Shown: one piece after another, positions 2 through 5,380 of the stretch
Layout of the letters: each line of letters opens with the position of its first letter
Position numbering within the stretch: the first letter of the stretch is position 1
Source of the DNA: Gilvimarinus xylanilyticus
Lineage (GTDB): Bacteria; Pseudomonadota; Gammaproteobacteria; Pseudomonadales; Cellvibrionaceae
Length of the DNA stretch: 64,000 nucleotides
Direction of reading: 5' to 3'
Assembly: GCF_024195295.1 (NCBI RefSeq)
Contig: NZ_JAMFTH010000001.1
Location: forward strand, 1,178,001 to 1,242,000
The notes under the pieces: generated by a model
Database searches by the model: none
Told to the model about the DNA's origin: nothing
What the model saw: only the letters and a program-made list of their open reading frames with translations
Program-made: the position numbers and the translations under genes

Positions 2-304
2 CTGCAAGAAAACGACTGGCAGGGCCAAATTAAGGCCATTGAGGCTCAGTTAACCCACGAACTGGCCCCCTGCCGGGATTTACCACAGGTAGAGGATGTG
101 CGGGTACTGGGGGGAATTGGTGTCGTGCAACTGCGCCAAGCGCCGCCTATGGAGGTCATTCAGCCGGCGCTAGTGGATCAGGGAATTTGGGTGCGCCCCT
201 TCGGCAAGCTGGTGTATATCATGCCGCCCTATTGCATTAACAAGGCGGACTTACGCTCACTGACCCAGGGGATTTACAAGGTGGTCAGCCACCTCAGCTC
301 ATAG
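2..304 (+). CDS. bioA: Adenosylmethionine-8-amino-7-oxononanoate aminotransferase, C-terminal end (partial)
   Basis: The last 100 codons of a gene entering from the left edge. The tail carries the BioA signature [11 protein letters not shown] followed by [18 protein letters not shown], very like the end of E. coli BioA. BioA is a PLP-dependent class III aminotransferase that converts KAPA to DAPA in biotin synthesis, using S-adenosylmethionine as amino donor. The PLP lysine lies outside the window, so activity cannot be judged. The stop overlaps the end of the convergent trpS gene by 11 bases, and no terminator lies between them. BioA is preferred over other class III aminotransferases because of the [10 protein letters not shown] block. 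Confidence 0.9.
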
Positions 305-1301
305 GTTTTAAACCCACTGCACGGCGCACTTTTTCCAGCAAAGGTGCGCTGTGTTCACGCGCTTTTACGGCACCGGCTTGCAGGATCTCTTCGATGTCGG
401 CCGGACGTTCCATCAGCTCAAAGTACTTCTCGCGGGACTCGCCAATTTGGCCGTTAATAAGCTCAAACAATTCGCGCTTGGCTTCGCCCCAGGCAATACC
501 GTCGGCAAACTTTTGGCGCATCTCGCTCACTTGCTCATCACTGGCGAAGGCTTCCCAAATCTGAAACACCGTCGAGGTATCCGGGTCTTTCGCCTCGCCC
601 GGCTCGAGCAAATTGGTTTTAATTTTGTTGATGTGCTTTTTCAGCTTTTTCTCGGGCAAAAACAAGGGAATGGTGTTGTTATAACTTTTGCTCATCTTGC
701 GGCCATCCAGGCCGTTTAAGGTGGCCACCTTGTCGTCCACCACCGCCTCGGGCAACACAAAATGGTCGCCATAGTGGTGGTTAAAACGCGCGGCAATATC
801 CCGAGCCATTTCAATATGCTGGATTTGGTCGCGCCCTACCGGAACTTTATTGGCGTTAAACATGAGTATATCCGCCGCCATTAGCACTGGGTAATTATAA
901 AGTCCCATGGTAATGCCGTAGTCTGGGTCTTCACCGGCCTCTTCGTTGGCCGCCACCGCCGCTTTGTAGGCGTGAGCGCGGTTCATCAAACCCTTGGCGG
1001 CCATACAGGTTAAAAACCAGCACAGCTCGGGAATTTCGGGCACATCGGACTGACGATAGAAAACGGCCTTTTCGGTGTTTAACCCCAAAGCGAGCCAAGT
1101 GGCAGCTATTTCACGGCGCGACTGTTCTACCCGCTCGGCGTCGTGGCATTTAATCAGTGCGTGGTAATCGGCCAAAAAGTAAAAGGATTCAAAGGCGGGA
1201 TCTTCACTGGCGGCAATGGCCGGACGGATAGCGCCCACGTAATTGCCCAAATGCGGGGTACCCGTGGTGGTGATACCGGTCAGTACGCGTTGCTTACTCA
1301 T
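294..1301 (-). CDS. trpS: Tryptophanyl-tRNA synthetase
   Basis: A class Ic aminoacyl-tRNA synthetase that charges tRNA-Trp in the cytoplasm. The 335-residue length fits bacterial TrpS. The HIGH-type motif is seen as PHLGN at residues 16-20 and the KMSKS loop is intact at about residues 202-206. The ATG at 1301 follows a GAGAG ribosome site. It lies 33 bases downstream of the glycosyltransferase gene on the same strand and appears to be the last gene of a leftward string that also contains tsaB and the M18 peptidase. Its 3' end overlaps convergent bioA. Nothing odd is seen in the sequence. Confidence 0.96.
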
Positions 1302-1333: not shown

Positions 1334-2464
1334 CTATAATACAGCCCCAAACGGCGGTTGTGTAGCAAGCTGCTTTATAACTCGGCCATAGTCGGGGCCC
1401 AGGCGATTCCAGGAAAAGCAGGAGACATCCGGGGGCGCGGGCCAGCGCCCCTCGTTAAAGCGCGTTAAATGCTGCGCCAGGGCCACAGCCAAGTTCCTGG
1501 CGTCAGCCTCGCAATCGCCACTCACTGGATAGCACCCATCGCCAAAGTACTCGGGATAAACTTGACGCTCGGGCAGCACCGGGATACAACCCGAGGCTAC
1601 CGCCTCGAGCACGGCAAGACCCTGAAAATCGTGATCGGCGGTGGATACCACCAGATCGCAACGACGCAACAGCTGGCGATACTGCTCGGCCGATTCCACA
1701 TACCCCCACTGGCCCAGGCCATCTGCAGCGGTTAACAAATCGCGTATCTGGGTAAAAACCGGGGGAACTTGGCGAAAGCGCTGCCCCACCAGGTGCAATA
1801 CAAAAGGTAGCTTGCCATTATGTTCGCGGCATATGATCTGCAGGGCGCGGTAAAGCAACTCGGGGTTTTTATCGTACTCCCAGCGATGGTTCCAAACCAA
1901 CTGGAGTTTAGCCTGCCTGGCCTTTTCCGGCCTGCGAAACCACTCGCTCTCTATGGGCACAGGCAAAACCACCGATTTTTGCTGCAACTTTTCAACAATA
2001 CCGGGCGGAACCAGATCGGGCAGTTTTTTAAGCAAAGCTTCCGCACCCGCCATAAAACTGCAGCGATTGTAGTCTGAGTTAAACGCTAAGGTATCGGCGC
2101 ACAGCGCGCTGTAAAGGCTGACGATTTGCGGTTCGACGGAGTGAGATTGGTGCTTACTTTGAGGGTAAGCGAACTGGTTTTCGTGAAAGTACAACAGCGT
2201 TGGCAACTGACTGAGCGCCGGCACCATACCCCGCAGGCTGGACAAATCCACCATTGAGGTGGCAACCAGACAGTCGTAACCATCGGCCAGTGCCTGGGCG
2301 TGAAGACCGGCAAAGCTCAGGCTGTTGCCGCGTATGCGCCAACTAAAATAGCGCGGCGGCAAGGCAATGTGGGTAAAGTCGATGGCAGGCAAGTGTCGGC
2401 TTAAACCCTGCCGCCAACGTTTATGGCTGTCGGCGTCATAGCCCGACAGCAACAGCACTTTCAC
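1334..2464 (-). CDS. DUF3524/GTDC1-like glycosyltransferase (tRNA-queuosine mannosyltransferase-like)
   Basis: A 376-residue family-4-type glycosyltransferase. The first 170 residues match the DUF3524 domain of animal GTDC1, now known as the tRNA-queuosine alpha-mannosyltransferase [17 protein letters not shown] near residue 90, then [11 protein letters not shown] near 190. The C-terminal half has WGYVES, the acidic [16 protein letters not shown] nucleotide-sugar block and VYPEYF. These blocks are shared with the eukaryotic protein as I remember it. The start is GTG at 2464, sharing its G with the TAG stop of the M18 gene, so translation is probably coupled. Neighbours tsaB and trpS also act on tRNA. 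By inference it may glycosylate queuosine tRNA; another acceptor is possible and no substrate can be proven from sequence. Confidence 0.8.
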
Positions 2465-3890: not shown

Positions 3891-4583
3891 CTAAGAGGAG
3901 CGAATACGTTCGCGCTTTTTCCAGGAAACCTTATCGCGAATATACATTGGCTGGACCTCGAGCACGTCAATAGCGTCACCGGTCAGCCACTGCTGCTCGG
4001 CCAACGCCAGTACCGATGTTGCCCGGAGGTTCGCATCGGGCTGCGCCTCGTGTCCGGAGTTCGCCAAGGGCGCTAGCGACCACCCTGCCCCAACACCAAC
4101 CACCGTAATTTGCTGCTCATCCAGCCAGCGCACAACATCCTCGGGCGACGAGGCCGCAGGCGCTTTATATTCGCTGATCTCACCTTGAACAACGCGGTAT
4201 ACCGCCCAATAAGTCTCTCCCATCCGGGCATCCAGCGCCGGCAGCAGCCATTCGACTTCGGGGGTTTGATTCAGTTGCTGCCAGGCCAGCGCTTCGAGAG
4301 TTGAGACCGCAATTACGGGTAAATCCGCCGCAAACGCCAGCCCCTGAATAACGCCCATACCAATTCGCAAGCCGGTAAAAGAACCGGGACCCGCGGCAAT
4401 GGCCAGGGCATCCAAATCTTTGAGGCTTATCTGCGCCTGTTCCAGCACTTCATCAATCATGGGCAAAGCGCGCTGGGTGTGGCTTTGCGCCGCAAGTTCG
4501 TAACTCTGCCATTGCTGATCCCCGACAGATAACGCTACCGAACAGGCCTCTCCTGAGGTATCCAAGGCAAGAATAGCGGTCAT
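3891..4583 (-). CDS. tsaB: tRNA threonylcarbamoyladenosine biosynthesis protein TsaB
   Basis: The 230-residue non-catalytic partner of TsaD in the t6A37 tRNA-modifying complex (with TsaC and TsaE). The N-terminus MTAILALDTSGEACSVAL and the block AGPGSFTGLRIGMGVIQGLA are diagnostic of the ASKHA-fold TsaB/YeaZ family. I chose the ATG at 4583, with GGAGAG upstream, rather than an in-frame start 18 codons earlier, because homologues begin here. An adk-tsaB neighbourhood is seen in Pseudomonas; here a histone H1-like gene with its own terminator lies between them. The gene probably heads a unit with the M18 peptidase, glycosyltransferase and trpS. Confidence 0.94.
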   Translation of the reverse strand: MTAILALDTSGEACSVALSVGDQQWQSYELAAQSHTQRALPMIDEVLEQAQISLKDLDALAIAAGPGSFTGLRIGMGVIQGLAFAADLPVIAVSTLEALAWQQLNQTPEVEWLLPALDARMGETYWAVYRVVQGEISEYKAPAASSPEDVVRWLDEQQITVVGVGAGWSLAPLANSGHEAQPDANLRATSVLALAEQQWLTGDAIDVLEVQPMYIRDKVSWKKRERIRSS

Positions 4584-4640
4584 GGGTTCTCTCCACGGCA
4601 AAAGCTCTATTTTGACAGATCGTGCAGCAACCACCAAGCC

Positions 4641-4693: not shown

Positions 4694-5380
4694 TTACGCC
4701 TTTTTTGCGGGGCGACCGCGTTTGGCGGCGGTTTTACGTTTTGCCGGCGCCTTACGGGTTTTGGCCTTCGCCTTAGCGGCCTCTTTGCGCTCAATTTCAC
4801 GCAACTTGGCTTTCGCCTTTTTCTCGGCGGCCTTAGCCTTAGCTGACAACTTGCGCGAAGCCGCTTTGACTTTTTGCGCATCGGCTTTCGCACGGGCCTT
4901 TAACCACTTAACCTCAAATGCCGCCTTGGCTTTTTCCAGATCGGATTGCGCGCGCGCAGACAAACGCTCCTCCATCTCCTGAACCTTGGCTTTGCTGGCC
5001 GCTTCAGTCGCACGCGCCGCCGCTAAGGTTTTTTCTTTTGCCAGGTTCGATTTTTGTTGCGCCAATTTTGCGCGTAGATCACGCGCTTTTTCATTGGCGC
5101 GGGCGACGCCATTAGCGGCGGTTTTTGCAGCGCGCTTATCAACCGCTTTCGCGCTTTTGGCTGCTTTAGCTTTTGCGGCCTTGGCTTTCGCGCGGGCTGC
5201 ATCAAGCTTTTTGCTGTGCGCATCCAACTGAGCCTGTGCTTTATCGACCGCGGTTTGCGCTTTTGCGACTGCTGGATCAACACTTGCCGTCGCCGCTTGA
5301 GCGCGCGTAGGGGATTTACGGGTTACGGACTTACGTTTAGCTGGCGTCTTGCGCGCTGTTTTTTTCGCAACTCTGGCCAT
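4694..5380 (-). CDS. Histone H1-like lysine/alanine-rich DNA-binding protein
   Basis: A 228-residue, extremely basic protein built mainly from K, A and R. The N-terminal 30 residues (KKTARKTPAKRKSVTRKSP) and C-terminal 40 residues resemble eukaryotic H1 tails and the Pseudomonas AlgP/chlamydial Hc1 type. The C-terminus ends KRGRPAKKA, with an AT-hook-like GRP core. The middle (about residues 40-190) is a long heptad-like alanine/lysine helix with E, D and Q, likely a coiled coil or extended helix. By inference it is a nucleoid protein. The ATG has AGGAGA upstream, and an AT-rich leader and a strong terminator make it a single-gene unit. The low-complexity composition makes exact orthology uncertain; no globular enzyme domain is visible. 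Confidence 0.8.
   Translation of the reverse strand: MARVAKKTARKTPAKRKSVTRKSPTRAQAATASVDPAVAKAQTAVDKAQAQLDAHSKKLDAARAKAKAAKAKAAKSAKAVDKRAAKTAANGVARANEKARDLRAKLAQQKSNLAKEKTLAAARATEAASKAKVQEMEERLSARAQSDLEKAKAAFEVKWLKARAKADAQKVKAASRKLSAKAKAAEKKAKAKLREIERKEAAKAKAKTRKAPAKRKTAAKRGRPAKKA

What the first reader, a model, noticed from the sequence alone, without database searches (positions are those of the whole stretch)
1334..2464. Bacterial homologue of the tRNA-queuosine mannosyltransferase (GTDC1/QTMAN type)
The protein carries the DUF3524 N-terminal domain and the NHRWE-DK, WGY, H-F-G-LEAV-GC and VYPE-F blocks that I recall from animal GTDC1. In animals that enzyme mannosylates queuosine in tRNA-Asp. 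A bacterial gene placed between tRNA-modifying and tRNA-charging genes suggests that glycosylated queuosine, or another tRNA sugar, may exist in this bacterium.
Basis: partly seen in the sequence, partly recalled or inferred. Interest (0 to 1): 0.72.

Follow-up and report, generated by a model that had tools for sequence, protein, structure and literature searches.

The report
Bacterial relative of tRNA-queuosine mannosyltransferase
This bacterium carries an intact relative of the animal enzyme that attaches a sugar to a modified letter of transfer RNA, and it has genes for making that letter and the sugar donor, so sugar-decorated tRNA here is a good but untested prediction.

Summary
In detail: window 1334-2464 (-) is an intact 376-aa gene with Pfam QTMAN_N (PF12038, E 1e-56) and a GT4-like donor domain; the AlphaFold model is a confident GT-B-like fold (pLDDT 92.6). 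It sits in an apparent operon tsaB - M18 aminopeptidase - this gene - trpS. The genome, of the same genus as Gilvimarinus agarilyticus, has tgt, queA, queG, gluQRS and a GDP-mannose pyrophosphorylase.

Best explanation: a glycosyltransferase that puts a hexose, probably mannose, on queuosine-34 of tRNA. Co-occurrence with Q genes agrees but does not discriminate: queA is in 22 of 22 carriers and in 315 of 347 non-carriers of the class sample.

Two cautions: an unrooted tree puts the window protein and the animal sequence on opposite sides of a well-supported branch, and GluQRS, which acts on Q of tRNA-Asp, is in nearly every genome of the family. No biochemical test was possible. A new member of a known kind with a testable prediction.

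The parts
1334..2464 (-). QTMAN-family glycosyltransferase gene, 376 aa, GTG start
   Evidence: ORF; PF12038 E 9.8e-57 and PF00534 over cut-off; model pLDDT 92.6
1952..2461 (-). QTMAN_N domain (residues 2-171), the N-terminal, acceptor-side half of the fold
   Evidence: Pfam match; 10 of the 20 positions shared by both groups lie here
2162..2191 (-). [10 protein letters not shown] motif (residues 92-101); Y92, H94, E95, Q97, P101 near-invariant
1532..1930 (-). GT1/GT4-type donor domain (residues 179-311)
   Evidence: Pfam match
1868..1891 (-). NHRWEYDK (residues 192-199); R194 and K199 expected to hold the donor diphosphate (assignment from recalled GT4 knowledge)
   Evidence: near-invariant in both groups
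1604..1633 (-). [10 protein letters not shown] (residues 278-287): D/E-x7-E motif of GT4-like enzymes (motif recalled)
   Evidence: E287 near-invariant in both groups; H278 is replaced in L132
2464..3792 (-). M18 family aminopeptidase, directly upstream; its stop overlaps the GTG start (TAGTG)
294..1301 (-). trpS, tryptophan--tRNA ligase, 32 bp downstream
3891..4637 (-). tsaB (t6A biosynthesis subunit); ORF as listed, the true start may lie further in

Best explanation
It is a retaining GT-B glycosyltransferase of the QTMAN family. It most likely transfers a hexose, probably alpha-mannose from GDP-mannose, onto a hydroxyl of the cyclopentene ring of queuosine at position 34 of one or more GUN-anticodon tRNAs, after Tgt, QueA and QueG have made Q. 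Shown here: family, predicted fold, intact motifs, conservation, presence of Q and GDP-mannose genes in the genome. Inferred: the acceptor (Q in tRNA), the sugar (mannose), retention of configuration, cytosolic location (no membrane or signal predictor was run). Open: which tRNA and which hydroxyl, since GluQRS is also present. I put a tRNA-Q hexosyltransferase of any specificity at about 0.68, and mannose on tRNA-Asp specifically at about 0.4.
For: PF12038 at 191.9 bits against a cut-off of 25. Confident model; nearest solved folds, of the 50 shown, are by their titles glycosyltransferases such as GlgM, SenB, MshA, BshA and PimA at 13-17% identity. Own genome has tgt with queA beside it, queG, gluQRS and a GDP-mannose pyrophosphorylase match with an open frame. 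One PF12038 match in the own genome. queA in 22 of 22 carriers of the class sample, one of them with a broken copy. Of 50 titled carriers given out of 80, queA in 46 and tgt in 46. Q genes (queA, tgt or queF) in the fetched flank of 8 of 80 titled loci.
Against: No biochemical evidence. Co-occurrence does not discriminate: 315 of 347 non-carriers in the class sample, and 107 of 111 genomes in the phylum of G298, also match queA. 16 of 61 family genomes lack the gene although tgt and queG are there. Carriers without a Q-gene match exist: G044 lacks tgt (83% complete); G269 and G304 lack both queA and tgt, G290 and G295 lack queA, G275 and G306 lack tgt; G384 lacks queA and G405 has it only below the cut-off. 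Carrier G008 (90% complete) shows no GDP-mannose pyrophosphorylase match. The window protein and the animal sequence lie on opposite sides of a supported branch. GluQRS in the same genomes would compete for tRNA-Asp. No Q gene in 39 other fetched carrier regions.
Confidence: 0.68

Rival explanations
1. A sub-case of the best explanation, so the odds overlap: it glycosylates Q, but with a different tRNA, sugar or hydroxyl from the animal enzyme, leaving tRNA-Asp to GluQRS.
For: Window-type rows (38 of 46) are separated by a branch with support 100/99. Six positions separate the groups, S7, A11, F40, G79, Y118, Q281, and the recalled animal sequence agrees with the other group at five of them. 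GluQRS is over its cut-off in 59 of 61 family genomes.
Against: 20 core positions are the same in both groups. gluQ is an ester (recalled) and could be lost or be made on a different pool of tRNA, so coexistence does not prove different targets.
Confidence: 0.3
2. It is a small-molecule glycosyltransferase that acts on free queuine, Q nucleoside or a pterin- or deazaguanine-like compound, not on tRNA.
For: Fold matches include small-molecule enzymes: SenB, BshA, MshA and a UDP-Glc:tetrahydrobiopterin glucosyltransferase.
Against: The similarity is at 13-17% identity and general to the fold; the N-domain is shared with an RNA-acting animal enzyme.
Confidence: 0.12
3. It is an ordinary cell-envelope or exopolysaccharide GT4 glycosyltransferase that only resembles QTMAN.
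For: The donor domain matches general GT1/GT4 models; weak profile matches to RfaG and GlgA. A gene cluster that I read by eye as uppP, an envelope lipid-carrier phosphatase, is in 15 of 81 neighbourhoods.
Against: QTMAN_N is a specific N-domain at 191.9 bits. The four window neighbours that were searched are trpS, an M18 peptidase, tsaB and a protein without a family. Most neighbour clusters were not annotated, so this is a limited test.
Confidence: 0.07

Closest known systems
Animal QTMAN (GTDC1), tRNA-queuosine alpha-mannosyltransferase
   Different: About 30% (N) and 40% (C) identity in local alignments to the recalled sequence; LSxYxAxSH, FxWR and HDFQG in place of E-x-F/Y-x-GGSH, WxWR and HEFFG; other side of a supported branch; the target of the bacterial form is unknown
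Animal-like bacterial members (L127, L131, L132, L165, L166, L167, L179)
   Same: Same domain pair and core residues
   Different: They share a side of the 100/99 branch with the recalled animal sequence; the window protein does not. The tree is unrooted, so this is one branch, not proof of common descent
GluQRS (glutamyl-Q-tRNA-Asp synthetase)
   Same: A bacterial enzyme that modifies Q34 (recalled); present in the same genome
   Different: Related to aminoacyl-tRNA synthetases; adds glutamate by an ester (recalled)
GT4-type enzymes of known structure (GlgM, SenB, MshA, PimA, BshA)
   Same: Same fold class; TM-score to the query 0.60-0.72, except MshA 3c48 at 0.45
   Different: 13-17% identity and other acceptors

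Membership tests
QTMAN family (Pfam PF12038) | QTMAN_N domain over the curated cut-off, full length | tested here: met
   191.9 bits against 25; profile 1-168 of 168
QTMAN family (Pfam PF12038) | GT4-like C-terminal donor domain with R/K pair and D/E-x7-E | tested here: met
   PF00534 over cut-off; R194, K199, E287 near-invariant; motif assignment recalled
QTMAN family (Pfam PF12038) | GT-B fold | tested here: met
   predicted model pLDDT 92.6, pTM 0.92; the 50 PDB matches shown of 312 at E <= 0.001 are by title glycosyltransferases or a pseudo-glycosyltransferase; that these are GT-B is general knowledge
tRNA-Q mannosyltransferase (activity) | Q can be made in the organism: tgt, queA, queG | tested here: met
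   queC, queD, queE and queF were not searched for in the whole own genome
tRNA-Q mannosyltransferase (activity) | GDP-mannose can be made | tested here: met
   GMP_PMI match over cut-off in G000; 477-codon open frame, the stop lies at its end; phosphomannomutase not searched
tRNA-Q mannosyltransferase (activity) | transfers alpha-mannose to the allylic OH of Q34 in tRNA-Asp | not testable with these tools
   needs LC-MS or an enzyme assay
Animal-like QTMAN subfamily | lies on the side of animal GTDC1 in a tree | tested here: not met
   38 window-type rows against 8 rows with the recalled GTDC1, branch 100/99; 56 against 4 rows, 99.
Envelope polysaccharide glycosyltransferase | lies among polysaccharide genes | tested here: inconclusive
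   searched window neighbours are trpS, M18 peptidase, tsaB and one without family; a cluster read by eye as uppP is in 15 of 81 neighbourhoods, most other clusters not annotated

The most novel reading that the evidence does not exclude
Gammaproteobacteria of this kind decorate queuosine-34 with a sugar, a class of tRNA nucleoside that the papers I saw describe only from animals, and do so in cells that also encode GluQRS. Two enzymes would then compete for, or divide between them, the same wobble nucleoside: either a two-way choice on tRNA-Asp, or a window-type QTMAN that has moved to another Q-tRNA, sugar or hydroxyl.
Probability: 0.5. Interest if true: 0.75.

Novelty: new member of a known kind. 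Interest (0 to 1): 0.5.

Why it matters
A 2024 review passage says that the sugar forms of Q are found in tRNAs of vertebrates and that glutamyl-Q is known only in bacteria (PMC12710937); a 2025 abstract says the sugar forms were found in many animals (PMC12518689, listing and passage). A working bacterial QTMAN would put sugar on a tRNA base in bacteria, would give the animal enzyme bacterial relatives with the same chemistry, and would offer a genetically simple system for asking what a bulky sugar at the wobble position does to decoding. The coexistence with GluQRS makes a sharp experiment: which cap is on which tRNA.

Tried and rejected
Co-occurrence as proof: rejected as weak, because queA is nearly universal in the samples. 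Mutual exclusion with GluQRS: tested and not found; both are present through the family.

Gene fusion: open frames of 707 and 726 aa around the domain looked like fusions, but the extra part lies upstream of the conserved start and reads as GC-rich chance frame by eye; I did not search it against families. Mobile or phage origin: no match in phages, plasmids or viral contigs at the limits used; viral fold matches are general glycosyltransferases at 7-17% identity among the 50 shown.

Solved relative: by sequence only weak partial matches. Context enrichment for Q genes: 8 of 80 titled loci, but these come from about three kinds of neighbourhood, with none in 20 and 19 other regions, so it is only a hint.

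A paper on sugar-Q in bacteria: none seen in ten searches; the library does not hold the 2023 Cell paper on QTMAN or the review that I asked for.

Rows dropped: L091 (cut) and L100 (too long) left out of the structure alignment, and 78 rows thinned to 70 at 80% identity. L133 (cut), L174 (208 aa) and L182 (broken) left out of trees and residue counts. Trees used chosen subsets (60 and 46 rows). Rows were limited to 340-420 aa and not thinned. tgt and queA were sought in 50 of the 80 titled carriers, chosen by me for spread.

Full report
What is there. Window 1334-2464 on the minus strand is an open frame of 376 aa with a GTG start. It matches Pfam PF12038, QTMAN_N ('tRNA-queuosine alpha-mannosyltransferase N-terminal'), over the whole profile at 191.9 bits (cut-off 25), and Glycos_transf_1 in the second half. 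That PF12038 was formerly called DUF3524 is recalled. NCBIfam gives nothing. By sequence, no solved structure is closer than weak partial matches. Upstream lies an M18 aminopeptidase whose TAG stop overlaps the GTG start, and before it tsaB. Downstream, after 32 bp, lies trpS. All four are on one strand, so an operon is likely but not shown. Consensus scans give a terminator-like stem ahead of tsaB (4672-4651), but also two such stems on the same strand inside the M18 gene and a promoter-like site (1364-1336) before trpS; the counts (13 terminator-like against 8.6 +/- 3.0 in shuffles, 2 promoter-like against 3.2 +/- 1.6) carry little weight.

Who carries it. G004, which is of the window's genus, has the same tgt coordinates as the genome of locus L042, titled Gilvimarinus agarilyticus, so the window genome belongs with Gilvimarinus. 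The domain is in 45 of 61 genomes of the family, 19 of 200 in the phylum (18 over the cut-off), 22 of 369 in the class and 13 of 111 in the phylum of the genome of L113, titled Lujinxingiaceae. It is in none of the 14 control genomes. A scan of titled genomes kept the best 80 of 566 confirmed stretches, and there were more candidates; by their titles these are mainly gammaproteobacteria, with Mariprofundus and a few others. No match was found in phages, plasmids or viral contigs.

Structure and residues. AlphaFold2 on 71 sequences gives pLDDT 92.6 and pTM 0.92. The 50 PDB matches shown are by title glycosyltransferases or a pseudo-glycosyltransferase at 13-17% identity. R194/K199 and D279/E287 fit the donor-diphosphate pair and the E-x7-E motif of GT4 enzymes (recalled). 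Conservation of the acceptor-side domain is my main argument that the acceptor is conserved too; that this domain usually diverges with the acceptor is general knowledge, not a result of a call.

Two groups. Unrooted trees of 60 rows and 46 rows have a supported branch (99; 100/99) with the window-type rows on one side and, on the other, the recalled animal sequence with three or seven bacterial rows: L127, L131, L132 from the phylum of L113, and also L165, L166, L167 and L179 from the class. Six positions separate the groups: S7, A11, F40, G79, Y118, Q281; the recalled animal sequence agrees with the second group at five of the six. The animal row is a long branch, is recalled, and served as the drawing root by my choice; the bootstrap had not settled. 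The difference between the bacterial groups is visible in the sequences without it (E-P-x-x-x-GSH and WKWR against S-x-Y-x-A-x-SH and FxWR).

Is the chemistry possible in this cell? The own genome has tgt with queA beside it (64% identical to E. coli QueA), queG, gluQRS and a GDP-mannose pyrophosphorylase in an open frame whose stop lies at its end. In the family, tgt is in 60 of 61 (the miss, G044, is a carrier and 83% complete), queG in 61 of 61, gluQRS over cut-off in 59 of 61 (the other two have it in pieces), GMP_PMI in 58 of 61 (misses: carrier G008, non-carriers G016 and G017). Of 50 titled carriers given out of 80, queA is in 46 and tgt in 46; G269 and G304 lack both, G290 and G295 lack queA, G275 and G306 lack tgt, and the titles of all six say MAG. 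In the class, 22 of 22 carriers match queA, but so do 315 of 347 non-carriers. In the second phylum queA is in 107 of 111; of its 13 carriers, 11 are over the cut-off, G405 is below it and G384 has none, and both of these have tgt.

Context. trpS is in the fetched flank of 28 of 80 titled loci. queA, tgt or queF is in 8 of 80 (L063, L081, L086, L087, L097, L107, L110, L111), and yajC without them, which follows tgt in E. coli, in three more (L100, L105, L108); some of these loci are cut by contig ends. None of 39 other fetched carrier regions holds a Q gene; at least six of them are on contigs already among the 80, and several are short. In the window genome tgt lies about 104 kb from this gene. 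A cluster that I read by eye as uppP is in 15 of 81 neighbourhoods. The neighbourhood is compatible with a role in translation but does not prove one.

The GluQRS problem. GluQRS glutamylates Q34 of tRNA-Asp (recalled; reference titles agree). From memory of a 2023 JACS abstract (Pichler et al.; not held) the glutamate sits on the allylic hydroxyl, the one that carries mannose in animal manQ (alpha-allylic, PMC8654956, passages seen). If so, the two enzymes would compete for one hydroxyl of one nucleoside in this bacterium, or the window-type enzyme uses another tRNA, sugar or hydroxyl. This is the most interesting open point and is directly testable.

Literature. I saw listings of ten searches and passages of PMC12518689, PMC12873605, PMC11703503, PMC12710937, PMC8654956 and PMC12313893. 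A 2024 review passage says that sugar-Q is found in vertebrate tRNAs and that gluQ is known only in bacteria. PMC12873605 reports lectin-detected glycoRNA in E. coli; its text has no 'manQ' or 'galQ', and E. coli is among the control genomes without PF12038. The 2023 Cell paper that named QTMAN is not held, so whether it already discusses bacterial members is unknown to me.

Verdict. A real, intact member of the QTMAN family with the genomic prerequisites that I could test. Bacterial members are within reach of the Pfam model, so the family assignment itself is not new; I saw no report of the chemistry in bacteria in the searches named. I file it as a new member of a known kind with a testable prediction.

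Noticed in passing
4694-5380 (-): A Lys/Ala-rich 228-aa protein without a Pfam or NCBIfam match, upstream of tsaB.
   Followed up: no
L182:8011-9146: The QTMAN homologue of genome G466 (rated 100% complete) is broken at about residue 140: its two parts lie in different frames and one search counts one TAA. A pseudogene or an assembly error.
   Followed up: partly
L127, L131, L132, L165, L166, L167, L179: Bacterial proteins with animal-like motifs (GSH after E-P, WKWR), from the phylum of L113 and from gammaproteobacterial families f171 and f128: possible bacterial kin of the animal enzyme.
   Followed up: partly
L114: A MAG titled Klebsiella pneumoniae carries a QTMAN that groups with an uncultured Pseudomonadales (99 support); the title is probably wrong.
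   Followed up: no
G001, G033, G051 (g2); G002, G034, G052 (g3); G016, G041, G059 (g16): Three genera of the family lack the gene in all three genomes sampled of each, although these keep tgt and queG: natural non-carriers for a comparison of tRNA nucleosides or codon use.
   Followed up: no
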